From Gammaproteobacteria bacterium (lineage in GTDB: Bacteria; Pseudomonadota; Gammaproteobacteria; Xanthomonadales; SZUA-36): DNA of 64,000 nucleotides. The stretch's first letter is position 1; every line of letters starts with the position of its first letter. Below the pieces are notes generated by a model. That model was not told where the DNA came from, did not search any database, and was given only the letters and a program-made list of their open reading frames with translations. Position numbers and translations under genes: made by a program. This document shows, piece after piece, positions 16,757 to 53,339 of the stretch. Location: assembly GCA_021772915.1 (NCBI GenBank), contig JAJFLB010000056.1:83240-147239 (forward strand). The letters are read 5' to 3'.

Positions 16757-16807
16757 CATACCGCGATCCTCGATCGAGTATCGGTCATGCAAGCCATTAA
16801 GTTCACA

Positions 16808-25812: not shown

Positions 25813-25946
25813 ACATTGTCTCCACGTTGAGACTGCTTTCCAAGGCGCACATTTTGCTCGCGGACAGACATAAAGGTCAACCACTGAATGCGTGACTCGT
25901 GGCCATATTGCCGGTATCGTACTTGCTCTTGATGCGATAACACCCA

Positions 25947-26978: not shown

Positions 26979-27047
26979 TCCGCAATGGCCCTCAGCACTT
27001 CGAAACTGTCATAATGCTACAGCACAAAATGTGTGGTACGGGTTGAC

Positions 27048-27849: not shown

Positions 27850-27878
27850 TTATCATTTTCAGATCGCGTGCTATTATT
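27850..27878 (+). promoter_or_regulatory. Possible operon promoter
   Basis: A tattat hexamer at 27873-27878 lies 17 bases after tttatc (27850-27855), in the AT-rich gap upstream of the repeat-protein gene. The -35 match is poor. This is the only sizeable gap before a 15-kb run of overlapping genes, so a promoter is expected hereabouts. The exact site is uncertain. Confidence 0.25.
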
Positions 27879-27933: not shown

Positions 27934-28929
27934 ATGAGCGATAAGCGCAAAACCAAGAAAGAACTTATTGAGGAACTGGAGGCATTACGCAGCAAGGTCG
28001 ACAATGCCTCCGATGATGCTTCGCAGGGTGATAAAGGTGGGGAAGAGGAATCAACTGGTGGTCTGACCCGCCGCGAAGTTCTAAGCGGCTGGATCGCACC
28101 TGTAATCCTGACTGTGCCCGTGGTACCACGCGCCGCTGTGGCCCAGCAGGGTGGTGAGGGTCTTGAATTCGTGGCCTTTCCAACCGCGCTCGAAGTAGAC
28201 CTGCAAAAAGCCGTGGTACCTACAACGGTCGCATTTATTGAGGCAGTTACCGCCAGCCCGACCAATAACCCAACCAACAACCCGACCAACAACCCAACCA
28301 ACAACCCGACCAACAACCCGACCAACGAGCCGACTACCGAGCCGACCAATGTCCCAACCAATAGCCCGACCGGCAGTCCGACCACGGCTAACCCGACCAA
28401 CAACCCGACAGTTCCAACCAGTAGCCCGACAGGCAGTCCGACCACGGCTAACCCGACCAACAGCCCGACGACGAGACCGACCACGGCTAACCCGACGCAG
28501 AGTCCAGTTACTGCCAGCCCGACGCTGAGCCCGACCGCAGTCGCTACAACATTAAGTCCGACCGGTAGTCCGACCACGGCTAACCCAACGCAGAGCCCGG
28601 TTACGGCTAACCCGACCAATAGTCCAACCGCAGCAACACCGACCACGGCTAACCCGACATTAAGTCCAACCTCCGCGGCACCGACCAAGAGCCCAACCCG
28701 GCGCCCAACCCGGAGCCCAACCTTTGCCCCGGGTGTGACTGCGGCGCCAACACAGAGCCCAACCTCGGCAGCACCCACCAAGAGCCCAACCGCATTCCCC
28801 ACGCAAAGTCCAACTACGGCAACGCCAACAACGGCGAGCCCTACCAGCGTGGCGCCAACGGCGAGCCCAACGGCTGCACCAACGGTTATCATTCCAGTTG
28901 AACTGACAGATTTCGAGGTTGACGGATGA
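27934..28929 (+). CDS. Pro-Thr repeat protein with charged helical leader and twin-arginine signal; likely modification substrate
   Basis: 331 residues; 'aggga' precedes the ATG. Residues 1-25 are a Lys/Glu-rich amphipathic helix ('KKELIEELEALRSKV'), followed by an acidic linker to about 43. Residues 44-70 form a Tat-type signal ('TRREVLSGWIAPVILTVPVV' plus PRAAVA, R46-R47) with likely cleavage at AVA/Q. Residues about 108-318 are a low-complexity array with about 45 Pro-Thr dipeptides, opening with five perfect PTNN units and grading into PT(N/Q/L/K)S and PTTAN units. The tail is 'IPVELTDFEVDG'. N-P-T is not an N-glycosylation sequon, so the array suits Hyp or Thr O-modification. The gene heads an operon of dioxygenases and glycosyltransferases and is the obvious candidate substrate. 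The leader before the Tat signal could bind the PqqD domains encoded next (inference). Confidence 0.85.
   Translation: MSDKRKTKKELIEELEALRSKVDNASDDASQGDKGGEEESTGGLTRREVLSGWIAPVILTVPVVPRAAVAQQGGEGLEFVAFPTALEVDLQKAVVPTTVAFIEAVTASPTNNPTNNPTNNPTNNPTNNPTNEPTTEPTNVPTNSPTGSPTTANPTNNPTVPTSSPTGSPTTANPTNSPTTRPTTANPTQSPVTASPTLSPTAVATTLSPTGSPTTANPTQSPVTANPTNSPTAATPTTANPTLSPTSAAPTKSPTRRPTRSPTFAPGVTAAPTQSPTSAAPTKSPTAFPTQSPTTATPTTASPTSVAPTASPTAAPTVIIPVELTDFEVDG
28258..28329 (+). repeat. 12-bp tandem repeat encoding PTNN units
   Basis: Six consecutive near-perfect 12-base units (consensus ccgaccaacaac with ccg/cca and aat/aac third-base variants; the last unit ends in gag) encode PTNN x5 and PTNE. Strong unit identity means this end of the array can change length by slipped-strand replication, unlike the more diverged distal repeats. 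Confidence 0.9.
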
Positions 28930-28930
28930 C

Positions 28931-30343
28931 ATGAGCCGGTCCAGGGCAGCCGGTAAGAGTGCCGGAAACAAGAAAAAGACAAGTAAGCAACCGGCCACTG
29001 GCAGAAAAAAACGCCAAAAAAGGGCTCCCAGGCAAGCAGAGACTTACCCATTGAGGCCACTCAAATTGGGTGGTCCGGAGTTGTACAGTGTCGCCGACGA
29101 GGCTGTGCTGGTGCCGGAGCAGGGTACGGACATATTTGCCCTCAATGCTACCGGTGCCCGGGTCTGGGAAATGTGTGACGGGCGTCATTCATTGCTTGAT
29201 ATGCATGACAAGCTGTGTGCACGTTTCGATGGTGACAAGGTGCAGGTGATGGCTGACATGGCCACTGCCCTGTTCCGCTTCCGCTCCCTGGATTTATTGG
29301 AACCACAATCACTCGTTGACCCACGGATCGCGAGAACCGGCACCATTGTGCTGGCACCCGGCGAAGACCCCCGCCCCAAGGTGCATATTGTGCACGGTAT
29401 AGAAGACAATCATTATTTCCGTTGGCAACTGGCCATCATGTTTGAATCACTGGTGGGCAAGATGCCGGCCGGTTGGGAAATCAAGGTTGTCGTGTGCAAT
29501 GACCATCGTTCGATATCAGCGGATTTAAAACACATCCTTGACACCTACGATGTGCAGCATTTTACCGGCGAGAGCCACGCGGATAATCATCATATTGACT
29601 TCGCCGGCGGTGGTGACCGGTACGTACCCATGAACCGTGTCGAGGCTTTGAATATTGTCAGTCATCACGTGGCACCGGATGATCTGGTGTGCCTGATGGA
29701 TACCGATATATTTCTCTACGGCGAACTCCGGCCGGAGCTGTTTCCCCGGCACAATGCCATGGCCAGCAACTGGATCATAGCGCAGGAAAAGTACTTCCAG
29801 TTTGCCGCCAATGACACCAAGGGTCTCCAGTTGCCCAAGCTACTGGAAGCACTGGGTTGTGAGCAGGAATTCAAACCTGGTGGCGTTATGGTTTTCCTTA
29901 CCGGCGAAACACTCCAGCGCAATGACCGTAAAGTCATCCGCGACTGCTTCAGGTTTCTGCAGATTCACTTCCTGGCAGGTAAAATCCTGGATATGCCGCA
30001 CCACGGTGTTTGGGTCGCCGAGATGGCTTGTTTTGCCATGGCCATGTACCCCAACGGGATCGATTACGAACTGCTGGAAATTGAACAATTCGCAGTCCAG
30101 GAGCAACATGCGGATGACCTGCCCGAAGGGACGTTTTTCCACTACTACACGGACATCAACGATGAAGGCAGCCTTGGGCCGTTCTTTGAGTCCCAATGGC
30201 ACAAGCAGCTGTTCTCCAACCAGGATTTCCTCAAGTCTGACATTGACAGTTTTCTGGATGTCGCAAAGGGTAAGGCAGAAATACAATTCATGACACTGGC
30301 CAAGCAGGCTCGAGACAGGTTATATGGAAAAGCAGATGACTGA
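28931..30343 (+). CDS. PqqD domain fused to a Hyp/Ser-glycosyltransferase-like GT-A domain
   Basis: 470 residues from the ATG at 28931, one base after the upstream stop region (TTG at 28919 also in frame). Residues 1-35 are strongly basic. Residues about 50-126 are a PqqD-type winged domain ('FALNATGARVWEMCDGRHSL', 'RFRSLDLLEPQ'); PqqD is the prototype RiPP recognition element that binds leader peptides. Residues 150-450 are a GT-A enzyme: 'VHIVHGIEDNHYFRWQLAIM', 'RYVPMNRVEALNIV', 'DDLVCLMDTDIFLYGEL' (D257-x-D259), 'FKPGGVMVFLTG', 'EMACFAMAMYPNGIDYELLE'. The order resembles plant hydroxyproline O-arabinosyltransferase and peptidyl-serine galactosyltransferase. A similar pair, with the domains in reverse order, lies at 33996. 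Predicted to glycosylate the repeat protein in the cytoplasm. Confidence 0.75.
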   Translation: MSRSRAAGKSAGNKKKTSKQPATGRKKRQKRAPRQAETYPLRPLKLGGPELYSVADEAVLVPEQGTDIFALNATGARVWEMCDGRHSLLDMHDKLCARFDGDKVQVMADMATALFRFRSLDLLEPQSLVDPRIARTGTIVLAPGEDPRPKVHIVHGIEDNHYFRWQLAIMFESLVGKMPAGWEIKVVVCNDHRSISADLKHILDTYDVQHFTGESHADNHHIDFAGGGDRYVPMNRVEALNIVSHHVAPDDLVCLMDTDIFLYGELRPELFPRHNAMASNWIIAQEKYFQFAANDTKGLQLPKLLEALGCEQEFKPGGVMVFLTGETLQRNDRKVIRDCFRFLQIHFLAGKILDMPHHGVWVAEMACFAMAMYPNGIDYELLEIEQFAVQEQHADDLPEGTFFHYYTDINDEGSLGPFFESQWHKQLFSNQDFLKSDIDSFLDVAKGKAEIQFMTLAKQARDRLYGKADD

Positions 30344-30971
30344 CAGCAAGTTGACCAGGAACCTGTTTGACATGCCCGAATGGCTCAAGCAACAAACCCT
30401 TGAACAGCAGGAAAACGCACCCTATTGCGGCTTGGGTTTTAAAAAAGGCCGACTGGAGCCGGATCTGCATGCCCGCATGTTGAAAAACATTGAAGAAAAT
30501 GTTTCGCTGTTCCGGCCTGAGCATAATGTCAGAGAAATTGAATCTGTTGAACCCGGTGTCATACCGGTGTTGTTTCACGAGGACCGCGAGTTCAACCAAT
30601 CCATAATGGAGGCGCTCAAACCCGTGCATACAACCTGGTCGGGGATGCGTCTGGAGGAATCCGCCTGCTATGGTTTCCGAATCTACCAGCGTGGTTCGTA
30701 CCTGTACAATCATGTAGACCGTACCCAGACCCACATTATCAGCTCCACCATCTGCGTGGACCACCGTCTCGAAAAGCCCTGGCCACTTTACATCGAAGAC
30801 ATTGATGGCAACCCTTACCAGGTGGATATGGAACCGGGTGAGTTTGTGTTTTATGAGGGGGCACGGCTCATTCACGGTCGCCCCTGGGCACTTGATGGGG
30901 ATTACTACATTGGTATGTTCGTCCATTATCGTCCTCAAGACATTGCCTCCCACCAGGCGCTACAACGATGA
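30324..30971 (+). CDS. 2OG-Fe(II) dioxygenase-like protein
   Basis: 215 residues from 30324 (ATG at 30336 also possible); the gene overlaps the previous stop by 20 bases. 'SACYGFRIYQRGSYLYNHVD' gives the facial triad start H130-x-D132; 'RTQTHIISSTICVD' follows, and 'VFYEGARLIHGRPW' gives H184 with R186. The cupin-like strand order is that of 2OG dioxygenases that hydroxylate peptide side chains. It is the single-domain counterpart of the second domain of the protein at 9261-10907 and of similar sequence throughout. Position between the two PqqD-GT fusions supports action on the same substrate, possibly as an Asn, Thr or Pro hydroxylase (inference). Confidence 0.75.
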   Translation: MEKQMTDSKLTRNLFDMPEWLKQQTLEQQENAPYCGLGFKKGRLEPDLHARMLKNIEENVSLFRPEHNVREIESVEPGVIPVLFHEDREFNQSIMEALKPVHTTWSGMRLEESACYGFRIYQRGSYLYNHVDRTQTHIISSTICVDHRLEKPWPLYIEDIDGNPYQVDMEPGEFVFYEGARLIHGRPWALDGDYYIGMFVHYRPQDIASHQALQR

Positions 30972-32983
30972 GACAGCTGTACTACACCAACTACGAATCG
31001 GGCCAATCCGGTCTGAGTAACGCGATTATGTCGATCGAAATTGGCGTGGTACTTGCGTTCCTGACCAATCGCTTCCTGTTGCTGGATGGCAACGTATCGC
31101 CGCCTGCCAACGTGGTGGCCTATGACGGACGTATTGACAACAAAGTCATGAGCAAAGTGACTGACCTGCTCGACATTCCGGTGGCATGGAGCGAACCGGA
31201 TAGCAAATCGTTGGCGAGAATAGATAGTCAGGAATTGACCGACCACCACCTGATGGATTCTGTTTTTTACGTGCCCGGCAGCGTCGATATCGACTCCGAT
31301 GATGCCGGTCAGTTCGCGCGTGGCCGCGAGAACTGGCTGTGCGAAACCGAAGAATTGTTCGACGTACCATTGCTAAGGGTTTCAGAAAAACCTAAGGCCA
31401 AAAACGAAAAGCGGCATCGGAATAACCTGGGATTCTATTCCTATTTCTTCTATTTCAATGACGAAACCCGGCGCGCCGTCTACAAGGTGCTGGAGCGTAT
31501 GCGGGCCAAGGCGCCTTTCGCAGAGCTGGCGCAGCAGGTGGCCAGGGATCTTGGCAAATTCAACGCCGTGCACATGCGACGTGGGGACTTCAAGGTGACC
31601 TACGGTGTGACCGTACTCGACCGCCATCCATGGGAAGCCATCGATGCACTGGACAAACATTTCAAACACGACGACCGGCTGTTGATCTGCACGGATGAAC
31701 GGGATGATCCATTCTTCAAGGATCTGAAGGCCACTTGGAAAAATCACGTTTTCATAGACCACCATATCCTTGATAACTATGGCAAGGAATTTTTCGACTT
31801 GCCACGACACGACAGCATTGCCCTGGCCTACCTTTCACAACTGGTCGCTGCAGAGTCACAGGATTTTATCGGTACAATGACCAGCACTTATACATCCATT
31901 ATCCAGCGTCTGAGAGGTAATCGCGGCGCAGATGAGCCGTTCAAGTTCCTCTGGAACGAGCTGCCAGAACCGGATGACCGTTACGAACGCGGCCGTCATC
32001 CGGTCAGCGAGTGTGTACCACTGGAAAACGGTATCATGGTCGAGGAACTGGAAGGACCGTATTCCTGGAATCGCTACAATCAACGAATCAACCCCGCCTG
32101 GATGCGTGAATGGCCGGAAAGCTTCCTTACTGACGCGGCCCTGGAGTCGGGAACCCTGCTTGCGGATGTGAAAACCAGGGTTGTTCCCCTTTCAGGCACT
32201 ACTGCCCGCACCAAAGCACACTTACATTTCGAGGGGGTTCGGGTGCGGGTCAAAAGCTCAATTCCGGGACTGGCATTCAGACTGTCAGAAGTGTTCAACC
32301 AGGGTGAACGCGGGGAGCAGAGCGCTATCATTGCCGACATTTCAGTCGAATCGAGTCAGGATCAGTTTGTGATGTCTGCCGGCGGTCGTGAACTGGCTAA
32401 CAGTGGAACACAAAAGAAAATCATCGGTGAGTTGATCAGGCACGTGGTCCGCGTTTTGACGGATGCCCGGCGCTATCACTGCTGGCTGATTGGCATACTG
32501 TTCAGAAAAAAGGAAAACACGATCGTCTACATAGGCGACCTGGGGGCGTCTGGCAAATCCATTGCCGACGCCATGTGCACCTCCGGTTGGGAAATGCTGG
32601 CGGATGAAGTCATCCCGGTGCGTGTAAAGACCGCTGAGGCCATACCATTTGTACGCATGTCCTGGCCAAAAGGCGCTGCCGCGCGGTTAGAGTGGAATAA
32701 GACCAAGTTAGCCGCAGTCGTCCACGGGAGCGCTCGCCTGCATGGCAAGGACACGGTCACCCGGCTTACACCAGCTGTCGGCGCAGCCGAAATGCTGCAG
32801 CAATGTTTTGATTTTCGCTTTGACCGAAAACGTGCCACGGAGCGACTGTGCAAGGTTGCCTCTGTATTGCCGATCTACGCACTCTCTTTCAGTGAGTCAT
32901 CCAGGGTACCTGGCGTGCTTGAGTTTTTGGCCTCACACGGCGACGCTGGTGAGAAAACTGCCATCGCATCGGGAGGTGGATAA
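30968..32983 (+). CDS. O-fucosyltransferase-like domain fused to an HprK-related kinase-like domain
   Basis: 671 residues, ATGA overlap with the previous gene. Residues about 1-330: 'FNAVHMRRGDFKVTYGVTVL' (H202-M-R-R-G-D207), 'LLICTDERDDPFFKDLKA' and 'ESQDFIGTMTSTYTSIIQRL' match GDP-fucose protein O-fucosyltransferase-type GT-B enzymes. Residues about 410-660 resemble HprK-related kinase A: a P-loop-like 'GDLGASGKSIADAMCTSG' (K530-S531) followed by 'WEMLADEVIPVRV' with an acidic D546-E547 pair. The loop is unusual: the first Walker-A Gly is Asp, so ATP binding is not assured. HprK-related kinases and PqqD proteins are known to co-occur in predicted peptide-modification loci; a fusion to a glycosyltransferase is atypical. 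Confidence 0.7.
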   Translation: MRQLYYTNYESGQSGLSNAIMSIEIGVVLAFLTNRFLLLDGNVSPPANVVAYDGRIDNKVMSKVTDLLDIPVAWSEPDSKSLARIDSQELTDHHLMDSVFYVPGSVDIDSDDAGQFARGRENWLCETEELFDVPLLRVSEKPKAKNEKRHRNNLGFYSYFFYFNDETRRAVYKVLERMRAKAPFAELAQQVARDLGKFNAVHMRRGDFKVTYGVTVLDRHPWEAIDALDKHFKHDDRLLICTDERDDPFFKDLKATWKNHVFIDHHILDNYGKEFFDLPRHDSIALAYLSQLVAAESQDFIGTMTSTYTSIIQRLRGNRGADEPFKFLWNELPEPDDRYERGRHPVSECVPLENGIMVEELEGPYSWNRYNQRINPAWMREWPESFLTDAALESGTLLADVKTRVVPLSGTTARTKAHLHFEGVRVRVKSSIPGLAFRLSEVFNQGERGEQSAIIADISVESSQDQFVMSAGGRELANSGTQKKIIGELIRHVVRVLTDARRYHCWLIGILFRKKENTIVYIGDLGASGKSIADAMCTSGWEMLADEVIPVRVKTAEAIPFVRMSWPKGAAARLEWNKTKLAAVVHGSARLHGKDTVTRLTPAVGAAEMLQQCFDFRFDRKRATERLCKVASVLPIYALSFSESSRVPGVLEFLASHGDAGEKTAIASGGG

Positions 32984-33999
32984 TGGCCAGCCATGAGGAT
33001 ACCCAAGCAGGCGGGCGCATGATCTCGGTCCAGTTGCAGCTGGAGAGTGGTCATGAACTGAAACTTACCCTGGGCGAGCAGTCCCCGGAACTGGTGACCC
33101 TGTTCCGCATTCTGGCCAGCAGAAATTCCGACACCGTGACGCCGGCCGAACAGTTCCTGCAATTACCGCTGAATAATGGCGCCGCTGCGTGTTCATTCCA
33201 TTCCCGTCAACTGGTCTCCATCATCACGGAACCCCCGGTGGTGGTCCAGTTGGAGCAGGCCGAGACACCCGAGACAGCACCGGTCGCAACAGCTGTGCCA
33301 CCCACTGTCGTGGTGAATACACCGCGTTACCTGATCATTGATGATTTCCTGGGACACGACGAACACCGGGACATGCTGGCTTTTGCAATGAACCACGAGG
33401 ATCAGTTTGAAGCTGGAACGGTGGTGGGACATGAAACACCACATCGAAAGAATCAGGTTATCCTGAGTTTTGCTGAGACGGCCCATGCCAAGTTATTGTC
33501 TAACCGACTGCTGACCTGGCTACCCATGTTGACTGAAGAACTCCAGATGGAACTGTTTCCTGTCCGCTTTGTTGAATCGCAGCTGACAGCCAGCAACGAT
33601 GGACATTACTACCGCGTACACTGCGATACCGGCGCCGACGAGGCTGACTTTCGCGCCATCACGTGTGTGTACTACTTCTTTCGTGAGCCACGTCCTTTCA
33701 ACGGCGGAACCTTGCGACTGTATGACAGCATAAATCAGGGTGACCGGCGCGAGGCCAGCGGAAGTTACCGGGAAATCGAGGCAGTCTCCAACCGACTGGT
33801 GGTATTCCCAAGTTCCGCGCACCATGAACTCATGCGCATCCGCTGCCCATCGGGGAAATTCGGTGACAGTCGCTTCGCCATAACCAACTGGATCCAGATC
33901 AGCCCTGAACCACGACCGGATGACACCTTTGGTTGGGGTCACCTGCGTTGTGGCGTCCTGCCTGCACAATACGGTGACCTCGCAGGAAGTTCACAGTGA
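32983..33999 (+). CDS. Prolyl-hydroxylase-like 2OG-Fe(II) dioxygenase with N-terminal shared module
   Basis: 338 residues; ATG overlaps the previous stop (TAATG). Residues about 14-88 are the beta-rich module shared with 9261 and 36034 ('LQLPLNNGAAACSF', 'LVSIITEPPVVVQ'). Residues 115-310 are an SM-20/P4H-like dioxygenase: 'YLIIDDFLGHDEHRDML', 'GHYYRVHCDTGADEADFRAI' with H213-x-D215, 'VVFPSSAHHELMRIRCPSGK' with distal H281 (or H280), and 'GDSRFAITNWI' with 2OG-binding R297. Such enzymes hydroxylate proline in peptides. It sits between the kinase fusion and the second PqqD-GT in the same coupled operon, making the Pro-rich repeat protein its likely target. Confidence 0.85.
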   Translation: MASHEDTQAGGRMISVQLQLESGHELKLTLGEQSPELVTLFRILASRNSDTVTPAEQFLQLPLNNGAAACSFHSRQLVSIITEPPVVVQLEQAETPETAPVATAVPPTVVVNTPRYLIIDDFLGHDEHRDMLAFAMNHEDQFEAGTVVGHETPHRKNQVILSFAETAHAKLLSNRLLTWLPMLTEELQMELFPVRFVESQLTASNDGHYYRVHCDTGADEADFRAITCVYYFFREPRPFNGGTLRLYDSINQGDRREASGSYREIEAVSNRLVVFPSSAHHELMRIRCPSGKFGDSRFAITNWIQISPEPRPDDTFGWGHLRCGVLPAQYGDLAGSSQ

Positions 34000-35126
34000 T
34001 CATCACCGTATTTGTAACCACTGCCGATGAGAGCGATCAGTGGCGGGCTGAATTGCTCGAGCACTCCTGGATGCAGACGCAACAACCCGGTGAGTTGGTT
34101 CGGCTGGTAGCCAGTTCATCCGCTACGCCGCTGCCGATGCACAGTCTGGCTCGAGTGGTACGTACCCGGCCTTACAGTCCACACCCGTATATTGATGACC
34201 GTTTTCCCGGTTACAATCAACCAGGTGCACTGCTGGAATGGCTGTTCCATGAACGGATCGATGCAACGTTGCTGTTACTGGACAGTGACTGCCTGATGCT
34301 GAAATCCGTGACGGAGGAGCTTGCACCGGGCGAAGCCATCGGCAACCCATGGCGCGAATGGCCGAAGGGCGAAGGACCATTCGGATTATCCGAGGACTAT
34401 CAAAATCTGCAGGCTTTTTGTGTCAATCGTGATTTAAAGCCATCCAAAATCAGGTTTCCCTTGCTCATCCATTCCCGGGACCTGAAGAAAATGGCGGCCC
34501 GCTGGCTGGAACTGACAGCACTGATCCGCTGTGAGGTTAACTACACGGCAGGCAAAGTCCCCGAGGCACACCAGGTGGCCTACACCATCGCGGCTTCTGA
34601 ATACCGGATTCCCCACAAGGTTCAAAAATTGGCCGTGATCCCCAGCGACCGAAAGATCGACCGGCCATTGTTAAGCTACCAACAAGCAGTGGAGTCCCCA
34701 AGAGGGGAAATTGTCTGGAGTTCAGAGACATACTCGCCGTGGTCGAAATGCAAGCCTGAAAAAGCAAAGGCCGGCGTCGGACGTCAATTCCTCGAGAGAC
34801 TCAACAAATACGTGTCCCTGGTCGATGCGGGCGAACAACTGCGATTTCACCGGCCGTTGCGCTGTCATGGCGTACGTGAAGCGCGCTTGCCTGGAAAGAT
34901 GTTGCTGGAAATACCCGACGCGGAGCGGCCCGTGACTCTCAATGCCTCGGCTGCCGCCATCTGGGATCTGTGCGACAACCAGCGTACACTTTCGGAGATC
35001 GCGGATGTGCTCGAGAAGCGATTCGATGTAGCACGTAGCATACTGTGTCGGGACATCGATTCGACAATGAAGCATTTACACACTGACGGCGCCGTCGTTT
35101 TGGAACCTGCCACCCATGACCACTGA
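33996..35126 (+). CDS. Hyp/Ser-glycosyltransferase-like GT-A domain fused to a C-terminal PqqD domain
   Basis: 376 residues from a GTG overlapping the previous stop (GTGA). Residues 1-270 have the hydroxyproline-arabinosyl/peptidyl-serine-galactosyltransferase layout: 'ITVFVTTADESDQWRAELLE', 'HSWMQTQQPGELVRLV', 'RFPGYNQPGALLEWL', 'DATLLLLDSDCLML' (D96-S-D98) and 'HQVAYTIAASEYRIPHKV'. Residues about 290-372 are a PqqD domain ('VTLNASAAAIWDLCDNQRTL', 'MKHLHTDGAVVLE'). This is the same pair of domains as at 28931 but in inverted order, which argues that the PqqD part acts as an independent substrate-recruiting unit. Confidence 0.75.
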   Translation: MIITVFVTTADESDQWRAELLEHSWMQTQQPGELVRLVASSSATPLPMHSLARVVRTRPYSPHPYIDDRFPGYNQPGALLEWLFHERIDATLLLLDSDCLMLKSVTEELAPGEAIGNPWREWPKGEGPFGLSEDYQNLQAFCVNRDLKPSKIRFPLLIHSRDLKKMAARWLELTALIRCEVNYTAGKVPEAHQVAYTIAASEYRIPHKVQKLAVIPSDRKIDRPLLSYQQAVESPRGEIVWSSETYSPWSKCKPEKAKAGVGRQFLERLNKYVSLVDAGEQLRFHRPLRCHGVREARLPGKMLLEIPDAERPVTLNASAAAIWDLCDNQRTLSEIADVLEKRFDVARSILCRDIDSTMKHLHTDGAVVLEPATHDH

Positions 35127-36033
35127 TCAAGCCAAGGCCAGCATTTTCGTTTCAATTGCCTCCTACCGGGATGAGTTTCTTCCTTTTACCATCAGGTCTG
35201 CCCTGGAACAGGCCGCCCATCCTGAACGTCTGACCTTTGGTATTTGCTGGCAGGCTGACGAGACAGAAAATCTCGATGAGTGGCTGGAAGACCCGCGTTT
35301 TCGCATACGACGCTACCCCTACCAGGCCAGCCTTGGCTATGGCTGGTCACGTACTGAGATCCAGAAGCTGTACGCCGACGAAAAGTACCATCTGTTGATC
35401 GATTCCCACACCTGGTTTGCCAAGGGCTGGGACGACAACCTCATTGGGCAACTGGAAAGCAAACCCGGCAAAAAGCCGTTGTTAACCACCAGTTCTCCAC
35501 CGTTCACTTTTGACGGTGCAGGTGAAGTTGTCATTCCATGGGCCGGTACAGACATGGATGGCGTCCCCCTGATGACCTGCGAGGTGATTCCACCGGTCGG
35601 TTGGATTGATATCCAGATGTCGCCGCAACGCAAATCCAGGAAGCACGAACTTACGGCACTGGTGTGTTGTAATTTCGTATTCACACATGGAAGCTGGATC
35701 CGCGAGGTTCCGGAAGATCCCGCCATGATCAACGCCGGCCACGAGGCCGCACTATCGGTCAGGACCTACACGCACGGCTATGACATCTACCTGCCTGACG
35801 AATTGCAGATCTGGCACCTGGATTACGACAATTACCCAGATGGCGAGCGCCACAAGGTGTGGGAGGCAAAGACGGACCGCTGGCAGGCTGAGCATACCGA
35901 TGGCATGATTCGTCGGCTGCACGCATTGTTCTACGGCAAAGAATCCCCGTCGATTCTGGGTCGGTATACCCTGGGTGAGGTACGCAGCCTGGATGAGTGG
36001 GCGGAACTTGCGGGTCTGAAGCTGGAAATCTAA
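35116..36033 (+). CDS. GT60-like polypeptide N-acetylglucosaminyltransferase
   Basis: 305 residues, ATG inside the end of the preceding gene (11-base overlap). 'ASIFVSIASYRDEFLPFTIR', 'HPERLTFGICWQAD', 'YHLLIDSHTWFAKGWDDNLI' with D-S-H, and 'CCNFVFTHGSWIREVPEDP' define the PF11397/GT60 family. The paralogue at 25947 shares all of these. GT60 members act on proteins; the best known glycosylates hydroxyproline in Skp1, directly after a 2OG-dependent prolyl hydroxylase. Here the dioxygenases and the GT60 gene are in one operon. Confidence 0.8.
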   Translation: MTTDQAKASIFVSIASYRDEFLPFTIRSALEQAAHPERLTFGICWQADETENLDEWLEDPRFRIRRYPYQASLGYGWSRTEIQKLYADEKYHLLIDSHTWFAKGWDDNLIGQLESKPGKKPLLTTSSPPFTFDGAGEVVIPWAGTDMDGVPLMTCEVIPPVGWIDIQMSPQRKSRKHELTALVCCNFVFTHGSWIREVPEDPAMINAGHEAALSVRTYTHGYDIYLPDELQIWHLDYDNYPDGERHKVWEAKTDRWQAEHTDGMIRRLHALFYGKESPSILGRYTLGEVRSLDEWAELAGLKLEI

Positions 36034-39000
36034 GTGCCGGAACGGCAACTTCAGCCCAGGGATAGACCCGAAACCCCGGTATGGTGTGAGGATGCGGAGA
36101 CCGCACCGCTGGATATCATCGTGTTCAGCAAAGACCGGGCTTGCCAACTCGACGCTTTACTCCGCAGTATGCGTGAGTTCTTTGACCTACCGCACCGACT
36201 GCACGTGCTTTACACAACCTCCAGCTCCGAATTTGAGCTGGGGTATGACTTGCTGCGCATATGGCACCGTGGTGTACGCTGGGTCGGCGATGGGGGTGTA
36301 TTTGGTCTGACCATGCAGAAACTGATGGCCGCCATTGACCGCGGTCCTGGCCGCTACCTCATGTTCCTGGTTGACGACATGATGTTTACACGGACTTTTA
36401 CCGCCGGGAAACTCATGGAATCCCTGAGTGATGACGACGATATTCTCGCGGTCTCCTTACGCATGGGTGAAGACATTACCTATTGCTACGTGCGTGATAT
36501 CCAGACCACCCCTCCTGACTTCAGCAAGGGTTATCGGTGGAGTTGGAAAGACGCCAGTACGGGGTACTGGAACTACCCCATGTCACAGGACGCACATATA
36601 TTTCGGACAAGCGATTTTGCCGAGCTTCTGCCCCGGTTACGTTTTGTCAACCCCAATACACTGGAGGCTACGCAGTCCGGTCATCCGTTTCCGCGCCCCG
36701 ACATGGTCTGCGAGGCGACTTCCTGTGTCATCAATATCGCAGCCAATCGGGTACAGTCCATCTATAAAAACCGCTGCGGAAACATCAGTGCAGAGTTTTT
36801 GAACGAATCTTTTCTGGCCGGTCTGGCCATTGATGTTGTGCCCTTTACCGGCAGGGTTTATAACTCCTGCCATATCGATGAAGACCTCGCTTTAATCGAT
36901 GATAAACGGGACCGGTCTCCGCATGGTTTTGAGAAGTTCGAGCGCAACGGCCGGCAGTACTTTCGTGTCGATCTGCGCAAAATACCCACCTTTGTGCTGA
37001 ATTGTGAAGACGACACTGAAAAACGCTGGTTAATGCAGGAGCAATTGACTGAGTTGGGGTTGAACTTTGAGTTCATACCCACGTTGAAGGTCAAGCCGGG
37101 CTGGGTCGGCGTCGCGCTCGCACACCTGAAGGCTCTGCGTCTTTCGCGTGCGGTCCCTCCTTTTCTTGTGCTGGAAGATGACTGTGTTTTCAATACACAC
37201 TTCCAGCCGGTAATCGAAATTCCAGCCGAGGCCGAAGCTGTTTACCTCGGTGTCTCCATCTTTGGGCTTGAAAAACCGGGCAAAATGAGCTGGGGCAAAC
37301 CCGACAAGGTCTTGTGGGAGCATTTCGATGAAGGCTATTTACGCGTCCACAACATGCTGGCCCGACATGCTCTGCTCTACCTTGACGAAGACTTTCAGTC
37401 AGCAGTAATTGGTTCACAAGTCGAGGCACTCACCAACCGCCAGCTGTCACACATGGGTGATATCGGGGTGGCAATGCTCCACCATTCACACACGGTGCTG
37501 GCTTTGGATCGTAACGTTTGCCGGCAAAGGAACCGAAATACCACCGACAAAGACCTTGCCGAAGCATTACCCGGTAACGAAATCCGGCCTGCTGGCAGCG
37601 AAGCGGTAAAACCTGCCCATTCCGTTCCACAAACTGGAAACAAGAGCAGGTTACCCAGAGGGCGCCACCTGGTGTCGCACAAGTACCGATTCATCTATTT
37701 TTCAATTGCCAAGAATGCCAGTAGTACTCTGCGAACAGAACTAGGCAAACCTCATTATCAGTGCGAGGACATCCGCTTCACCCAACAGGATGAAGCGATT
37801 GTGAAAGAATATTTCAAATTCACTTTTCTGCGTGATCCTGTATCCCGGTTTGTATCCGCCTACCAGGAAGTTTCTCTTCGGGGTGAAATGGATGATTCCG
37901 GTGTGCAGAAAAAACCATTTATGGAACTCGAAGACAACTCTGAAAGATTCGAAGCTTTTTTAACACAGGTCGAAGCAGAAAAGTGGGACACGCATGTGCG
38001 TACTCAAAGCGACGCAATCGGCCATTTCCACATGGATTTCTATGGCCGGATTGAGTCCCTGGAAAATGATTTGCAGCTGTTGTTTGACACATTGGGGCTT
38101 CCTGATTGCCCCCCATTACCCATGCGCCGCTCACGTGCCGGTCGCAAGAGTGATTACGACTACGACCGCTTTAATATCGACCACAATCAATTACCACAGG
38201 AGCAAATTGACCGGATTCGCGAACTGTACAAGGACGATGTCGCACTGATGCAAGCTTTCTGTCCCGAAGCGACGGGCCCAAACGGTGATTCGATTGCCAG
38301 AATATCCAGCCGGGTCAGGGCCCTAAAAATTGAAGAACAGGGTAAATTACCACCGATCGAGTTGTTCAAACGCGTCAACACGGAACACGAGCAATGCATG
38401 GTCTATGTTTTAGGTGACCGGGGTTTTTACGCCGAAGTCACCACGGTTGCACGTGCCATGATTTACGCCTGGGTACATGGTTATCAGTTATTGTTAGCCT
38501 CCAACGCCTCTTCCTGGGCGCATGAGAAAGGCTGGGCCGACTATTTCGAACCCTTTTGCCCGGAACCAGACGAGGTTGACGCCAAAAGGATCGTAGAAAG
38601 TATCGAGTTCCGGCACGACGGAGACAAAACAGACTTCAATCGTCTGCGGGGTTTCATGCCTGAAGTACTGTCATTCGGCCAAACTCACCTGCGAGGTTTC
38701 CAGGAAATTCTGGCGTTTTTTACGACCATGATCTTTCGGCCCACACCTGACTGCCAGGTCATGATTGATGAATTGACAGCCTCACTTAATCTTCCCGATG
38801 AGTATGACGCCATTCACGTGCGCCGGGGTGACAAGGTGGGCGATGAAGACGTCTACTATCCTGTCGAGGAATACCTGGACGGCCTGGGGCCGCTGAGCGC
38901 TGGCCGTACAGTGTTTGTTATGAGTGATGCCTGGGAGGCCGTGCAGCAAGTGCGTGACCATCTCGATGAGTTGGGCACCTCAGTCCGCGTTGTAACATTG

Positions 39001-42000
39001 GTCCAGCCTGATCGCACCGGCTTCGACGTCTGGAAACTCCGTCGTGGCGAGCCCTTCATTGGAGAAGGAAAGCAACAGTCGGATAAACAGCTCGAAAAAT
39101 ACTATGTCCGCGACAACACCCGCATGCTGATCGCTGAAACCCTGATTGCTGCAGGTGCAAAACGATTCGTTTCCACCTGGCTGTCCAACGTAGGGCGTAC
39201 CGTGTGGTTCCTGCACCCACAAAGGCAAAACTGCAAGCTGCTGCAGAGTACCGGCAGTACGGACTCGGATCAAGCCCAATCCTCATCTGCTACCACCACT
39301 CACCATTGGGCCAGCTTGCGCGACCAGAGAAGCCTTCAGAGACGTCGTAAACAGTACTCCAACACAAACCGCGGATTTCGGCACGCAGTCGTGTACCAAC
39401 TGTCCGGACAGGACCTGTTTGAAGAACTTTCAGGCCTGGCGCGGGCCATGATTTATGCCTGGTCCCATCAGCGGCAGCTGCGACTGGAGGACGATAGCCT
39501 GGTCAGGAACGGCGGTAGTCACTGGCACGAACTGTTCCAGGCCCTGGTGCCTGAATGTGGGGGTTTCAAAACAACGAGGATTAAGGAACGGTTTTCGATC
39601 ACAGATAAAGATGGGTTCGGCAAACTCTCCGGTTTTCAACCAGAACGTCTGAGTTTTGGATCGACCGCACTTCAAGGATTCCGGGAGATTCTGGCCTTTT
39701 TCATGCAAATGCTCTTCTGGCCCACATCAGCCAGTCAGGGCCGCATAGACCTATTGCTGCAAGAATTACCCTTATCCGATAACTATGACGCTCTGTACTT
39801 TGGGCCCGGCGAAGCAACTGACAATATCAGCGTGGTAAGCCAATCTTTGCAACGTCTGCAACCAATACCGGAAGACCGTTCAGTGTGCGTGATCACCGGC
39901 AATGATGAAGTATTTTCCGAGGTTGGCAGAGGTCTGGCTGCAGGTGGTTACAAGACCCGTTCCAGCATCCTGCGGCAAGCAAAAAATGAAGATCAGCTCG
40001 CGCAGGAAACCCGGTCCCTCGCCGAACTCACACTTGCCCTGCGTGCCCGGTGTTTCGTGGCATTGGCGGACTCACGTTTTGGCCAGGCGGCCTGGTTGCT
40101 GCACCCAAGAAAAGCCGGCTGCCACCTGCTGGACAGGATAGGGAGTACCAAGCCCGCAGAAAACGGTGCCATGGTTTGCGCGGAACTGCAATTGCGTGAT
40201 GGCCGCTTGTTCGAGCTGGATCTCCCGGCCAATTCCCAACATCTCGCACGACTGCGAGACCTCTCCAGCTACGCCACGCAAACTGCCAGTATGGTGCAAC
40301 TACCGCTTAATGGTGGGCATTCAGCACTGGCCTTCTCCACCAGTGACCTGGTCCATCTGAAGTTAGAGCCCGTTTCGTCCCATGCTCCAGATCTGCTGAA
40401 TCTGACCACCCCCCACCCACAGCCCGTGTCCAAACACAATGGGCCGGTATTCATGAACACCGATGAGGGACATCTGGGTGGCTACGTACGTGCCGCTCAC
40501 CCGGTCTCGGTGCAGAGAGGGTGGCACAACGGAGACCCGAAGTGCTGGAACCCCAAACTCTGGGACTGGGCCTGCAAAGCTCTCAAGGTTCGCTCGGTGA
40601 TGGATGTTGGCTGTGGTGAGGGTCACTCCGCTAAGTACTTTCAAGATCTGGGGTGCCGGGTGCTGGCCATCGATGGCAGCGTCCAGGCGCAACGAGACAG
40701 CGTGATTCCTGACCGGCACGTGCGGCATGATTTCATCAATGGGCCCTACATCCCGGCCAGAACCTTCGACATGGTGTGGTGCTGCGAATTCGTCGAGCAC
40801 GTGGAAGAAAAATACTCACATCATTATCTCACCACGTTTTCACTTGCCCGGAAATACATTTTTTTGACCTATGCAGTACCCGGGCAACCTGGCTGGCATC
40901 ACGTAAATTGCAAACCCGAGGGCTATTGGGTGAGTAAACTCGAAAGACTGGGGTTTGAGCTAGACAATGATCTCACCAGCCAGGCCCGGGAGATCGCTGA
41001 ACCTGGCCATTTCAAGCCGCGGGGACTGGTCTTTGTACGTGTGGATGGAACTCGTCTTGCATTACCCGAAACTGCGGCTGGTGAAGCATCGACAGTTGGT
41101 CCCGCACGGGGCCTGATCGCAGCATCGCGACAGGCCTTGCCAGTGAAAAACATGCTGATCACGACCATACATGATCGTCGTTTTTTTCTGTTCCTGGACA
41201 TTTTTGTACACCCGGACCGGGAAAAAATTGTTGCGGTTATGCCCTGGTATAACGAGGACTGGGACCCGCGATCGGAGGGCATAGACTTTAGCAAAGTGGA
41301 GTTGCTCTACCGCGGTAAACGAATCAGGGGCACGTATATTCCTCACCGACTTGATTCATGGGAACCTTGTGCGTTGCTGGACTTTGAAGACCCGCTGTTG
41401 GCGAAGTGGCTCAAAAAACGTAAATCCGTCAGCATTCAGATCAAAGCCGGACCACATTCCAGGAAATTCAAGCTCTCGACCCAACCACAGCCCGCCTACA
41501 ACGTACTGATGAGTCTGGTAATCAAGAATGAAAACCGCTGGGTGCGTCACTTCCTGGAGTACTACCTGGAATGCCTGCAAGTCGATCACGTGCTGGTCTA
41601 CGATAACTTCACCAAGGACCGTGACGCATTGCTCGAGATACTGAATCCCTACCGCAAGACCGGCAAGGTCACTTACATCCCCTGGAGTTATCGCTGGCGC
41701 AACATGGGTAGCCCAAAGAAGATGATCGCCCAACCGCAGCAGGAGGCCCATTCCCTGAATCGTTTTGCGAATTCACGCTGGATCGGCTTTCTTGACGTGG
41801 ATGAATTCCTGCGTCTGCCCGGCACAACCCTGCCGCGGTTCCTGGGGTCTTACCAGGGCGCCAATGTGGATGGCTTGTCATTCGGATTACGCTGGTTCCA
41901 CTACCAGGGGGCGTTGGAATTTAATGAAATCATTGATGTCCCGCTTACCTTCCGTCGCTCACGTCGCTCCAGGCTGGGCAGGAAACGGCAAAAATTCCTG

Positions 42001-42900
42001 GTTTCACCACATCAGGTTCGTTTCCTGCGTCTGCATACATTGGAAGAGGGTGGACGTGAACTGCAAATCGATGACACGGACATCTATTTCCACCACTACT
42101 GCCAACGCGATTACCGCTTCAAACAGGAAGAAACAGAGCAGTACCAGTACGACGACTACATGATGCAGTTCGCCGATCGCCTAACGCTGGACGGTACAGG
42201 CGATGCGCGCCCGGAAAAACCCTCCAGCCCTGAAGCGTGGATCGGCCATATTAGCCGTGCTATCGCCGAAGCGGAGTGTGGCCGCTCGAAACTCAACCGT
42301 GAAGGGCTGGCAGTGAAAGGCTACTGCGGGGTTCAGACCCGGCATTTTTACAACAATATCTGTAACTTCAATGGCTGTCGCTACCTGGAAATCGGGTCAT
42401 TGCATGGCGCCAGCACCGTGGCCGTCATGGCCGGCAACCAACTGGATCTAACTTGCATCGATAACTTTTCCCAGTTCCACGGCAGTCAACAGGAATTCGA
42501 GGCCAATATTCAACCGTTCAGGGGCGATAATCATCTCAGCCTGCTTACCGAGGATTGCTTCGCTATGGACACGGCCGGAATGGGTCCATTCGATGTCTAC
42601 CTGTACGACGGCGCCCATAGCTACGAAAGCCAGTACAATGCCATCAAGCACTATTTCAACACATTGGCGCCACTGGCAGTCGTCATTGTTGATGACTGGA
42701 ATTGGTGGCGGGTACAGAAGGGTACTCAGGAAGCGCTGGACGAATTCAACATCCCGGTTCTTTATCGCAAGGAAATACTACTTCCGGAGGTCAATGACGA
42801 GAAAAATGACAGCTTCGAACCAGGCCAGGAGAGTTGGTGGAATGGCATTTGCATCATGTTGATTGGCCGGAACGAACCGACTGAGTCCCGGGCGGATTAA
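36034..42900 (+). CDS. Giant multidomain glycan-modifying enzyme (GTs, sulfotransferase, two methyltransferases)
   Basis: 2288 residues; GTG follows the previous TAA directly. Domains by residue: about 20-290 GT2-like (LVDDM, D114-D115); 305-500 GT25-like ('FVLNCEDDTEKRWLMQ', LEDD 380-383); 540-765 sulfotransferase ('IAKNASSTL' K560; 'FLRDPVSRFVSAY' R600); 785-1075 GT23-like (H928-V-R-R-G-D-K934); 1110-1370 second GT23-like copy whose motif has become 'YFGPGEA' (Y1255 replaces His), hence probably inactive; 1380-1450 the shared beta-rich module ('MVQLPLNGGHSALAF'); 1480-1700 class I methyltransferase ('VMDVGCGEGHSAKYF'); 1715-2060 GT92-like (D1921-V-D-E-F); 2075-2288 methyltransferase (E-I-G-S 2119-2122, 'VIVDDWNWW'). 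The last operon gene; probably adds, caps, methylates and sulfates glycans on one scaffold. Confidence 0.85.
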   Translation: MPERQLQPRDRPETPVWCEDAETAPLDIIVFSKDRACQLDALLRSMREFFDLPHRLHVLYTTSSSEFELGYDLLRIWHRGVRWVGDGGVFGLTMQKLMAAIDRGPGRYLMFLVDDMMFTRTFTAGKLMESLSDDDDILAVSLRMGEDITYCYVRDIQTTPPDFSKGYRWSWKDASTGYWNYPMSQDAHIFRTSDFAELLPRLRFVNPNTLEATQSGHPFPRPDMVCEATSCVINIAANRVQSIYKNRCGNISAEFLNESFLAGLAIDVVPFTGRVYNSCHIDEDLALIDDKRDRSPHGFEKFERNGRQYFRVDLRKIPTFVLNCEDDTEKRWLMQEQLTELGLNFEFIPTLKVKPGWVGVALAHLKALRLSRAVPPFLVLEDDCVFNTHFQPVIEIPAEAEAVYLGVSIFGLEKPGKMSWGKPDKVLWEHFDEGYLRVHNMLARHALLYLDEDFQSAVIGSQVEALTNRQLSHMGDIGVAMLHHSHTVLALDRNVCRQRNRNTTDKDLAEALPGNEIRPAGSEAVKPAHSVPQTGNKSRLPRGRHLVSHKYRFIYFSIAKNASSTLRTELGKPHYQCEDIRFTQQDEAIVKEYFKFTFLRDPVSRFVSAYQEVSLRGEMDDSGVQKKPFMELEDNSERFEAFLTQVEAEKWDTHVRTQSDAIGHFHMDFYGRIESLENDLQLLFDTLGLPDCPPLPMRRSRAGRKSDYDYDRFNIDHNQLPQEQIDRIRELYKDDVALMQAFCPEATGPNGDSIARISSRVRALKIEEQGKLPPIELFKRVNTEHEQCMVYVLGDRGFYAEVTTVARAMIYAWVHGYQLLLASNASSWAHEKGWADYFEPFCPEPDEVDAKRIVESIEFRHDGDKTDFNRLRGFMPEVLSFGQTHLRGFQEILAFFTTMIFRPTPDCQVMIDELTASLNLPDEYDAIHVRRGDKVGDEDVYYPVEEYLDGLGPLSAGRTVFVMSDAWEAVQQVRDHLDELGTSVRVVTLVQPDRTGFDVWKLRRGEPFIGEGKQQSDKQLEKYYVRDNTRMLIAETLIAAGAKRFVSTWLSNVGRTVWFLHPQRQNCKLLQSTGSTDSDQAQSSSATTTHHWASLRDQRSLQRRRKQYSNTNRGFRHAVVYQLSGQDLFEELSGLARAMIYAWSHQRQLRLEDDSLVRNGGSHWHELFQALVPECGGFKTTRIKERFSITDKDGFGKLSGFQPERLSFGSTALQGFREILAFFMQMLFWPTSASQGRIDLLLQELPLSDNYDALYFGPGEATDNISVVSQSLQRLQPIPEDRSVCVITGNDEVFSEVGRGLAAGGYKTRSSILRQAKNEDQLAQETRSLAELTLALRARCFVALADSRFGQAAWLLHPRKAGCHLLDRIGSTKPAENGAMVCAELQLRDGRLFELDLPANSQHLARLRDLSSYATQTASMVQLPLNGGHSALAFSTSDLVHLKLEPVSSHAPDLLNLTTPHPQPVSKHNGPVFMNTDEGHLGGYVRAAHPVSVQRGWHNGDPKCWNPKLWDWACKALKVRSVMDVGCGEGHSAKYFQDLGCRVLAIDGSVQAQRDSVIPDRHVRHDFINGPYIPARTFDMVWCCEFVEHVEEKYSHHYLTTFSLARKYIFLTYAVPGQPGWHHVNCKPEGYWVSKLERLGFELDNDLTSQAREIAEPGHFKPRGLVFVRVDGTRLALPETAAGEASTVGPARGLIAASRQALPVKNMLITTIHDRRFFLFLDIFVHPDREKIVAVMPWYNEDWDPRSEGIDFSKVELLYRGKRIRGTYIPHRLDSWEPCALLDFEDPLLAKWLKKRKSVSIQIKAGPHSRKFKLSTQPQPAYNVLMSLVIKNENRWVRHFLEYYLECLQVDHVLVYDNFTKDRDALLEILNPYRKTGKVTYIPWSYRWRNMGSPKKMIAQPQQEAHSLNRFANSRWIGFLDVDEFLRLPGTTLPRFLGSYQGANVDGLSFGLRWFHYQGALEFNEIIDVPLTFRRSRRSRLGRKRQKFLVSPHQVRFLRLHTLEEGGRELQIDDTDIYFHHYCQRDYRFKQEETEQYQYDDYMMQFADRLTLDGTGDARPEKPSSPEAWIGHISRAIAEAECGRSKLNREGLAVKGYCGVQTRHFYNNICNFNGCRYLEIGSLHGASTVAVMAGNQLDLTCIDNFSQFHGSQQEFEANIQPFRGDNHLSLLTEDCFAMDTAGMGPFDVYLYDGAHSYESQYNAIKHYFNTLAPLAVVIVDDWNWWRVQKGTQEALDEFNIPVLYRKEILLPEVNDEKNDSFEPGQESWWNGICIMLIGRNEPTESRAD

Positions 42901-45008: not shown

Positions 45009-45080
45009 CGATGCATTGAGTCCTTTCGATTTGGGGTGCTATAGTCAACGGCTTATGGGTGACAAGTCAAGCAGCTGTTT

Positions 45081-45800: not shown

Positions 45801-45803
45801 CCC

Positions 45804-46223: not shown

Positions 46224-46305
46224 TCAATGCACTCCCTCAATTCAAACTTAAAACACTCTGCCCTGGCCCGGGGGGGTAAATCCGGGCTGGTCATAAATGG
46301 AGAAA

Positions 46306-47283: not shown

Positions 47284-47303
47284 GTATTCATCTCGTTCCC
47301 TTA

Positions 47304-51314: not shown

Positions 51315-51488
51315 TACTTGTACACGGTAGTGGCGACCTGTAACTCCCGGCTTCAACGTCTAAACATCCTGGTACATTGATCAAACAAGAAAATCAGGTG
51401 AGTGGTGGCTTTGCTGGCTGAAATTCAGCACCTCAGGACGGCTCGAATAAGTCGAACCACTGTAACTCTTTAACCCCGGAATCAGTTT

Positions 51489-52660: not shown

Positions 52661-52668
52661 CTAGCGTT

Positions 52669-53298: not shown

Positions 53299-53339
53299 TG
53301 GTTAAACCTTTACGCACTACAATCTGGAATTGCCCCTTG

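What the first reader, a model, noticed from the sequence alone, without database searches (positions are those of the whole stretch)
27934..42900. Candidate bacterial hydroxyproline/threonine O-glycosylation operon acting on a Tat-exported PT-repeat protein
Seen: eight genes with overlapping or abutting stops and starts encode a Pro-Thr repeat protein with an RR signal, two PqqD/GT-A fusions resembling hydroxyproline arabinosyl- and peptidyl-serine galactosyltransferases, two 2OG-Fe(II) dioxygenases (one prolyl-hydroxylase-like), an O-fucosyltransferase/HprK-like fusion, a GT60-like enzyme and a nine-domain giant. Known: in eukaryotes prolyl 4-hydroxylase followed by GT60 acts on Skp1, and prolyl hydroxylase followed by HPAT acts on extensins. 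Inference: hydroxylation and stepwise glycosylation of the PT array occurs in the cytoplasm before export. I know of no described bacterial pathway with this set.
Basis: partly seen in the sequence, partly recalled or inferred. Interest (0 to 1): 0.95.

Follow-up and report, generated by a model that had tools for sequence, protein, structure and literature searches.

The report
Leader-guided bacterial hydroxyproline-glycoprotein pathway
A gene cluster found in several distant bacterial groups pairs a Pro-Thr repeat protein, predicted to be exported, with enzymes predicted to hydroxylate its prolines and coat it with sugars inside the cell, likely guided by a tag at its front end; this would be a bacterial counterpart of pathways known from plants and slime moulds.

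Summary
In detail: eight overlapping or abutting genes at 27934-42900, the first encoding an RR-signal protein with 47 of 51 array prolines followed by Thr. Of ten loci (window plus nine fetched by the PqqD-glycosyltransferase), all ten have the first dioxygenase and nine an RR-signal Pro/Thr-rich protein whose first 22 residues and signal are conserved while the linker is not. Among 369 genomes of the class only the window's own has the full substrate or that glycosyltransferase. One dioxygenase matches Dictyostelium PhyA, the Skp1 prolyl hydroxylase, best among solved structures; two GT60 enzymes accompany it. The PqqD domain folds like a leader-binding RiPP recognition element. A GDP-mannose 3,5-epimerase gene lies beside it. 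Best reading: leader-guided cytoplasmic prolyl hydroxylation and glycosylation before Tat export. Against parts of it: the HPAT-like enzyme keeps DxD in 3 of 7 members, the kinase P-loop in 1 of 6, the small dioxygenase mostly lacks the usual 2OG-binding arginine, and L010 has no such substrate. Nothing biochemical is shown.

The parts
24841..25983 (-). GDP-mannose 3,5-epimerase homologue (homology starts about 170 nt inside this longest ORF)
   Evidence: PDB 2c59 E=6.7e-99; catalytic Cys, Tyr-x3-Lys and Lys aligned by eye; near the cluster also in L003/L042, L005, L007
25947..26978 (+). GT60-type glycosyltransferase a
   Evidence: PF11397 3.6e-45; DSH motif; homologue in 8 of 10 loci
27033..27755 (+). 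sulfotransferase
   Evidence: PF03567 7.4e-10; homologues in L006 and L042
27934..28929 (+). candidate substrate: leader + RR signal + Pro-Thr array, 331 aa
27934..27999 (+). conserved N-terminal segment (candidate leader, residues 1-22)
   Evidence: mean pairwise column identity 0.51 against 0.14 in the linker that follows (on alignment A7)
28066..28149 (+). RR (Tat-like) signal with AxA site (read by eye), residues 45-72
   Evidence: R46 R47 W53 P56 V57 I58 L59 P62 invariant in 9 of 9
28144..28926 (+). Pro-Thr array: 47 of 51 Pro followed by Thr, commonest spacing 4 (28 of 46 intervals tabulated)
28931..30343 (+). PqqD (RRE-like) + GT-A glycosyltransferase, 470 aa
   Evidence: PF05402; AF2 model pLDDT 84.5; Foldseek RRE 5v1u and LgtC/glycogenin; DxD: D257 64/65, D259 65/65
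29099..29296 (+). PqqD/RRE-like domain of the above
30324..30971 (+). small double-stranded beta-helix dioxygenase (P4H-like fold)
   Evidence: HxD..H invariant in 53 of 53; pLDDT 93.4; top Foldseek hit Pseudomonas P4H
30968..32983 (+). O-fucosyltransferase-like domain with HxRRGD + degenerate HprK-like domain
32983..33999 (+). N-domain + PHD-type prolyl hydroxylase
   Evidence: PF13640 9.8e-17; profile best PDB match 6t8m DdPhyA 2.5e-11, then PPHD 4iw3 and EglN1; H213, D215, H281, R297 invariant in 5 of 5
33996..35126 (+). HPAT-like glycosyltransferase + C-terminal PqqD
   Evidence: PF23452 0.0018, below cut-off; PqqD 9.3e-12; DSD motif
34929..35093 (+). PqqD/RRE-like domain of the above
   Evidence: profile finds PqqD 5sxy (0.0022) and, weakly, TbiB1 5v1u (0.039)
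35116..36033 (+). GT60-type glycosyltransferase b
   Evidence: PF11397 1.5e-44; DSH motif
36034..42900 (+). giant decorating enzyme: N-terminal part without Pfam match, GT25-like (sub-threshold), sulfotransferase, FUT8-like (a second copy lacking HxRRGD seen by eye), N-domain, methyltransferase, GT92, methyltransferase
   Evidence: parts occur in separate genes in L003/L042, L005, L006, L010, L011

Best explanation
The cluster likely makes a leader-guided, prolyl-hydroxylated and O-glycosylated Pro-Thr repeat protein: it encodes a protein with a conserved N-terminal segment, an RR signal and a Pro-Thr array, together with two dioxygenases predicted to hydroxylate its prolines and several glycosyltransferases predicted to build sugar chains on it. 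Proposed steps, all inferred: (1) the N-terminal segment is held by the PqqD (RRE-like) domains of the two PqqD-fused enzymes, which brings the array to the active sites in the cytoplasm; (2) the PHD-type enzyme (32983-33999), and perhaps the small dioxygenase (30324-30971), hydroxylate prolines of the PT units; (3) the GT60 enzymes add alpha-GlcNAc to hydroxyproline, as Gnt1 does on Skp1, or to the neighbouring threonine; (4) the PqqD-GT, the FucT-like enzymes (donor GDP-L-galactose or GDP-L-fucose) and the giant extend, sulfate and methylate the chain; (5) the finished protein leaves by the Tat route and leader and signal are cut off at the AxA site. Shown by calls: gene order, families, predicted folds, conservation, co-occurrence. 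Not shown: any modification, binding or export.
For: With the PqqD-GT as bait (so its presence is by construction), the small dioxygenase is in 10 of 10 loci (partial in L004) and an RR-signal Pro/Thr-rich ORF in 9 of 10; record titles name Luminiphilus, Nitrotoga, Deltaproteobacteria, Binatia, Nitrospirales and unnamed bacteria. Substrate and PqqD-GT share their distribution: only the own genome among 369 of the class has either; 8 of 9 system genomes have the full substrate match, each beside the PqqD-GT's contig position, and G568 and G573 have a second copy, one between the giant and the sulfotransferase/GT60a genes, the other about 7 kb from the epimerase. Conserved-variable-conserved layout of leader, linker and signal. 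PHD-type enzyme closest to DdPhyA, then PPHD and EglN1; GT60 accompanies it as in the Skp1 pathway, where Gnt1 needs PhyA's hydroxyproline (passages of PMC6939170; PMC7864055). RRE fold match: TbiB1 with its leader, TM-score by target 0.82, rmsd 2.0. Fusions tie parts together: two dioxygenase types in one window gene (9261-10922) and FucT-like with dioxygenase in L010. Epimerase for GDP-L-galactose near the cluster in window, L003/L042, L005, L007.
Against: L010 (Nitrospirales) has the enzymes but no leader/PT protein in the stretches read, and none by profile in its genome at E<=1. Small dioxygenase: position H184+9, where PHD2 has its 2OG-binding Arg (recalled), is Asp in 46 of 53, and no sequence-level link to the PHD-type enzyme was found. 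HPAT-like DxD intact in 3 of 7; P-loop in 1 of 6. The Nitrotoga arrays are short: 4 and 6 PT, with shuffle maxima of 4 and 5; L005 has 6 with a maximum of 7. PT-rich proteins without this leader exist elsewhere in two system genomes, so PT repeats alone are not specific. The leader helix resembles the N-terminal helix of sensor-like (by eye PAS) proteins in control genomes. No Tat model of Pfam or NCBIfam matched. P0001 has no PP or SPPP, unlike extensins. In the class searches only the best 4 and 14 first-look candidates per genome were scored.
Confidence: 0.55

Rival explanations
1. The PT protein is glycosylated directly on threonine (mucin-like), with no hydroxyproline in the linkage; the dioxygenases hydroxylate something else, such as the sugars or another residue.
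For: GT60 also contains the Trypanosoma cruzi polypeptide alpha-GlcNAc-transferase (PMC6939170 passages; that it acts on Thr is recalled). Thr follows 47 of 51 Pro. The small dioxygenase mostly lacks the canonical Arg, and its fold search also lists small-molecule oxygenases such as AviO1 and EvdO1.
Against: The second dioxygenase matches prolyl hydroxylases by profile, and nearly all array prolines sit in PT, which a Thr-only acceptor would not need (inference).
Confidence: 0.25
2. The cluster makes a surface polysaccharide or LPS; the PT protein is an unmodified spacer or anchor that travels with it.
For: Window 8.5-58 kb is rich in glycosyltransferase, sulfotransferase and methyltransferase genes and has an MBOAT; a bacterial GDP-mannose 3,5-epimerase has been proposed to serve LPS (PMC6678494 passages).
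Against: PqqD/RRE domains fused to glycosyltransferases and a conserved segment ahead of the signal fit a peptide substrate; prolyl-hydroxylase-type enzymes have no evident role in polysaccharide (inference); the PT gene lies directly before the PqqD-GT (gap under 150 nt) in 8 of 10 loci.
Confidence: 0.12
3. The system is a RiPP-type pathway whose product is a small processed peptide or peptides cut from the array, not an exported full-length glycoprotein.
For: PqqD/RRE fold, leader-like segment; RRE-glycosyltransferase fusions were noted as putative new RiPP clusters (PMC7470986 passage). A C25 peptidase (49257-51356) and a DUF1796 putative peptidase gene (16040-16792) lie in the window outside the operon.
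Against: RR signal in all 9 aligned substrates and both second copies; 59 to 261 residues after the signal; hydrophobic C-terminal segments in several, by eye; no peptidase among the eight operon genes by Pfam.
Confidence: 0.08

Closest known systems
Skp1 prolyl hydroxylation/glycosylation pathway (PhyA, Gnt1 of GT60; Dictyostelium, Toxoplasma)
   Same: PHD-type hydroxylase whose best solved match is DdPhyA plus GT60 enzymes; cytoplasmic setting inferred
   Different: bacterial operon; substrate is a repetitive RR-signal protein, not folded Skp1; PqqD-fused glycosyltransferases and a leader; exported product inferred
Serine-rich repeat adhesin glycosylation with accessory Sec (GspB/Fap1 type; recalled, no call)
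   Same: operon with repeat protein and its own glycosyltransferases acting before export
   Different: Tat-like signal instead of SecA2/SecY2, Pro-Thr instead of Ser-rich repeats, dioxygenases, RRE-like domains
RRE-dependent RiPP pathways (PqqD, TbiB1)
   Same: PqqD/RRE fold fused to modifying enzymes; conserved N-terminal segment in the candidate substrate
   Different: substrate has an export signal between leader and core and a long repeat core; leader binding untested
Plant extensin/AGP glycosylation (P4H, HPAT of GT95)
   Same: hydroxylase plus HPAT-like enzyme; Pro-rich repeats
   Different: no PP or SPPP in P0001; HPAT-like gene below cut-off and often without DxD; cytoplasmic (inferred) rather than ER/Golgi

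Membership tests
Skp1-type Hyp glycosylation pathway | PHD-type prolyl hydroxylase with HxD...H...R | tested here: met
   6t8m 2.5e-11; residues invariant 5 of 5
Skp1-type Hyp glycosylation pathway | GT60 (PF11397) enzyme | tested here: met
   1.5e-44 and 3.6e-45, cut-off 21 bits; DSH or DAH in 11 of 11
Skp1-type Hyp glycosylation pathway | Skp1 as substrate | tested here: not met
   no Skp1 domain among the nine proteins scanned; candidate substrate is the PT protein
RRE-dependent RiPP pathway | RRE (PqqD-like) domain in the modifying enzymes | tested here: met
   PF05402 over cut-off; TbiB1 fold match
RRE-dependent RiPP pathway | conserved leader in the precursor | tested here: met
   identity 0.51 in leader, 0.14 in linker
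RRE-dependent RiPP pathway | leader binds the RRE | not testable with these tools
   no two-chain prediction available
Hydroxyproline O-arabinosyltransferase (PF23452, GT95) | match over the curated cut-off | tested here: not met
   P0006 18.2 bits against 23.9; both L010 relatives pass
Hydroxyproline O-arabinosyltransferase (PF23452, GT95) | metal-binding DxD | tested here: inconclusive
   present in P0006 and both L010 copies, absent or altered in 4 of 7
HprK-type kinase | P-loop GxxxxGKS/T | tested here: not met
   1 of 6 members, P0004 only, in a shortened form
Prolyl 4-hydroxylase (small dioxygenase 30324-30971) | HxD...H iron triad on a double-stranded beta-helix | tested here: met
   53 of 53; predicted fold
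Prolyl 4-hydroxylase (small dioxygenase 30324-30971) | basic 2OG-binding residue 9-10 after the second His | tested here: not met
   at H+9 Asp in 46 and Arg in 4 of 53, at H+10 Tyr, Phe or His in 53 of 53; R186, two after the His, is invariant and could serve (inference)
Tat substrate | twin arginine before a hydrophobic stretch and AxA | tested here: met
   RR invariant 9 of 9; AxA read by eye in the window protein
Tat substrate | match to a Tat signal model | tested here: inconclusive
   none in Pfam (9 members) or NCBIfam (P0001 only)
GDP-mannose 3,5-epimerase | catalytic Cys, Lys and YxxxK | tested here: met
   alignment to 2c59, residues picked by eye; their roles as in PMC6678494 passages

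The most novel reading that the evidence does not exclude
A bacterial hydroxyproline-rich glycoprotein pathway in which a RiPP-type leader, read by recognition domains fused to glycosyltransferases, directs PhyA-like prolyl hydroxylation and GT60 glycosylation (with L-galactose, sulfate and methyl decorations) of a Pro-Thr array, after which the Tat route exports the finished glycoprotein. It would place the Skp1 chemistry in bacteria and join RiPP logic to surface glycoproteins.
Probability: 0.45. Interest if true: 0.93.

Novelty: new variant of a known kind. Interest (0 to 1): 0.86.

Why it matters
Hyp-linked protein glycosylation is known from plants, algae, amoebae and some protists (papers listed; partly recalled); the listings showed no paper whose title or abstract start describes a bacterial pathway for it. 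A conserved bacterial operon with a PhyA-like hydroxylase, GT60 enzymes and its own candidate substrate would give a testable bacterial relative of the Skp1 chemistry, a genetic handle on Hyp-glycosylation in a cultured bacterium (Luminiphilus syltensis), and a leader-plus-recognition-domain way to aim hydroxylation and glycosylation at chosen repeats.

Tried and rejected
More members by genome search: PqqD-GT found in 1 of 200 (order), 1 of 39 (family), 1 of 369 (class), 1 of 140 (family of G569) and 2 of 158 (family of G570), each time only genomes already known; none in viral contigs (145 stretches matched a pattern). The protein search with the substrate N-terminus gave 1 hit of 12 candidates, L003's protein, so it does not measure abundance.

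Likeness of the PqqD-GT to HPAT or peptidyl-serine galactosyltransferase: hhalign aligned the PqqD part only. Homology of the two dioxygenases at sequence level: hhalign probability 0.2. GDP-fucose against GDP-L-galactose as donor: a gmd over the cut-off is present in 7 of 9 system genomes, so it could not be decided. GT60 against solved structures: no match. The small dioxygenase alone against solved structures: no useful match. Promoter scan: 5 sites found against 11.1 expected by chance, so the site before the PT gene (27850-27877) is not evidence. Contig-length matching of the two best-120 lists gave 34 shared lengths, a rough sign of co-location only. The name 'prolyl 4-hydroxylase' that some sources give to relatives of the small dioxygenase is annotation, not evidence.

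Rows not counted or weak: L004, L006, L008 and L011 end inside the cluster, so absence of later genes there is not counted; L004's genome was not. L003 and L004 substrates were found by reading upstream ORFs, not by the BLAST; L006's small dioxygenase by the table. In one search, 14 further matches at E 0.017 to 0.9 were not counted as substrates.


Full report
What is there. Eight + strand genes lie head to tail at 27934-42900. The first encodes 331 residues: an N-terminal segment MSDKRKTKKELIEELEALRSKV, a variable linker, an RR signal (TRREVLSGWIAPVILTVPVV...AVAQ) and a Pro-Thr array. In the 261 residues from residue 71 on, 47 of 51 prolines are followed by Thr, most often four residues apart (28 intervals of four, 11 of five); shuffling gives 12.9 on average and 23 at most in 2000 trials. 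Pro and Thr codons vary within the array, so it is not only a fresh DNA repeat. In the own genome the Pfam PT repeat occurs at this place only, though that model misses several of the other substrates.

Conservation. A scan of genome contigs with the PqqD-GT alignment gave nine loci, so that gene is present by construction. Around it recurs the order GT60a, PT protein, PqqD-GT, small dioxygenase, FucT-HprK, PHD-type dioxygenase, HPAT-PqqD, GT60b, as far as the contigs reach and with gaps. Small dioxygenase: 10 of 10 loci with the window (partial in L004; L006). PT protein: 9 of 10, directly before the PqqD-GT in 8. FucT-like: 8 of 10 (L004 ends before it; in L011 another gene follows and the contig ends). 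PHD-type: 6 of 10 (in the other four the contig ends before it could appear; in L010 it is fused to the FucT-like gene). HPAT-like: 6 of 10; GT60b: 5 of 10 (absent from L010). GT60a: 8 of 10, counting L003's continuation L042. All nine substrates share L11, E14, L18, R46, R47, W53, P56, V57, I58, L59 and P62. Pairwise identity is 0.51 in the leader, 0.14 in the linker, 0.53 in the signal and 0.11 after it. The profile of leader plus signal finds this protein in 8 of 9 system genomes, with second copies in G568 and G573, both with PT units. In 369 genomes of the class only the own genome matches in full; 12 others have partial matches (at most 57 of 80 positions, E 5.3e-5 or weaker). L010 is the exception: no such protein, but a separate PqqD and an HprK-like gene upstream.

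Donor sugar. The gene at 24841-25983 is a GDP-mannose 3,5-epimerase by homology (E 6.7e-99). A homologue at 51% or more identity is in 7 of 9 system genomes; it is near the cluster in the window, L003/L042, L005 and L007, on another contig than the PqqD-GT in the other three, and in G573 about 7 kb from the second substrate. G572 has only a 34% relative and G575 none. GDP-L-galactose is a plausible stand-in for GDP-L-fucose (inference), so the FucT-like enzymes may use it; a gmd is also present in 7 of 9.

Mechanism and its limits. The layout of leader, export signal and repeat core, with recognition domains on two enzymes, suggests that modification happens in the cytoplasm under the leader's guidance and that the Tat route is used because the protein must stay inside until it is finished. 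These are inferences. The strongest single link to hydroxyproline glycosylation is the pairing of a PhyA-like hydroxylase with GT60, since Gnt1 acts on PhyA's product in the Skp1 pathway (PMC6939170 passages). The main rival is direct threonine glycosylation by the same GT60 enzymes.

Literature. Library searches listed no paper whose title or abstract start describes a bacterial Hyp-glycosylation pathway; only listings were seen for most of these papers. RRE-glycosyltransferase fusions were already noted (PMC7470986 and PMC12710340, passages), and a bacterial GDP-mannose 3,5-epimerase is characterised (PMC6678494 passages). PMC3797821 (passages) discusses GT60 in algae. Serine-rich repeat adhesin systems are recalled as the nearest bacterial parallel. 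Hence 'new variant of a known kind': the families seriously considered each miss or leave open a defining feature, but the logic of glycosylating a repeat protein before export is known.

Noticed in passing
window 32983-33290, 40144-40383, 9261-10922 (N-terminal part); L003 6657-7880: A small N-terminal domain (by eye GGHxxxLxL...FxQLPLxxG...LVxIxTxPP), without Pfam match, is shared by the PHD-type dioxygenase, the giant, a fused double dioxygenase and a nucleotide-sugar transferase; perhaps a second recruiting module.
   Followed up: partly
window 9261-10922 (-): One gene fuses the N-domain, a 2OG-FeII_Oxy_3 dioxygenase and a relative of the small dioxygenase, linking the two hydroxylase types.
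   Followed up: partly
window 43443-48743 (-); L003 2231-6197; L011 3-3508: An MBOAT acyltransferase and two neighbouring genes recur beside the cluster in two other loci, where the two neighbours form one ORF; possibly O-acylation of the product.
   Followed up: no
window 49257-51356 (-); L005 18067-20274: A peptidase C25 protein near the cluster in window and Luminiphilus; could be a processing protease.
   Followed up: no
L042 1491-2075 (-); L057: Second substrates with the same leader and signal and, by eye, a hydrophobic C-terminal segment that suggests a membrane-anchored form.
   Followed up: partly
L074, L076: Small RR-signal proteins with related signals but no PT array in genomes without a PqqD-GT match.
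   Followed up: no
L007 2387-5428, L008 2473-6096: Large DUF1796 + glycosyltransferase proteins upstream of GT60a; the window has a DUF1796 gene at 16040-16792.
   Followed up: no
window 1-2000 and 52001-54000: GC drops to 0.43-0.44 against roughly 0.5-0.57 elsewhere; possible recent insertions.
   Followed up: no
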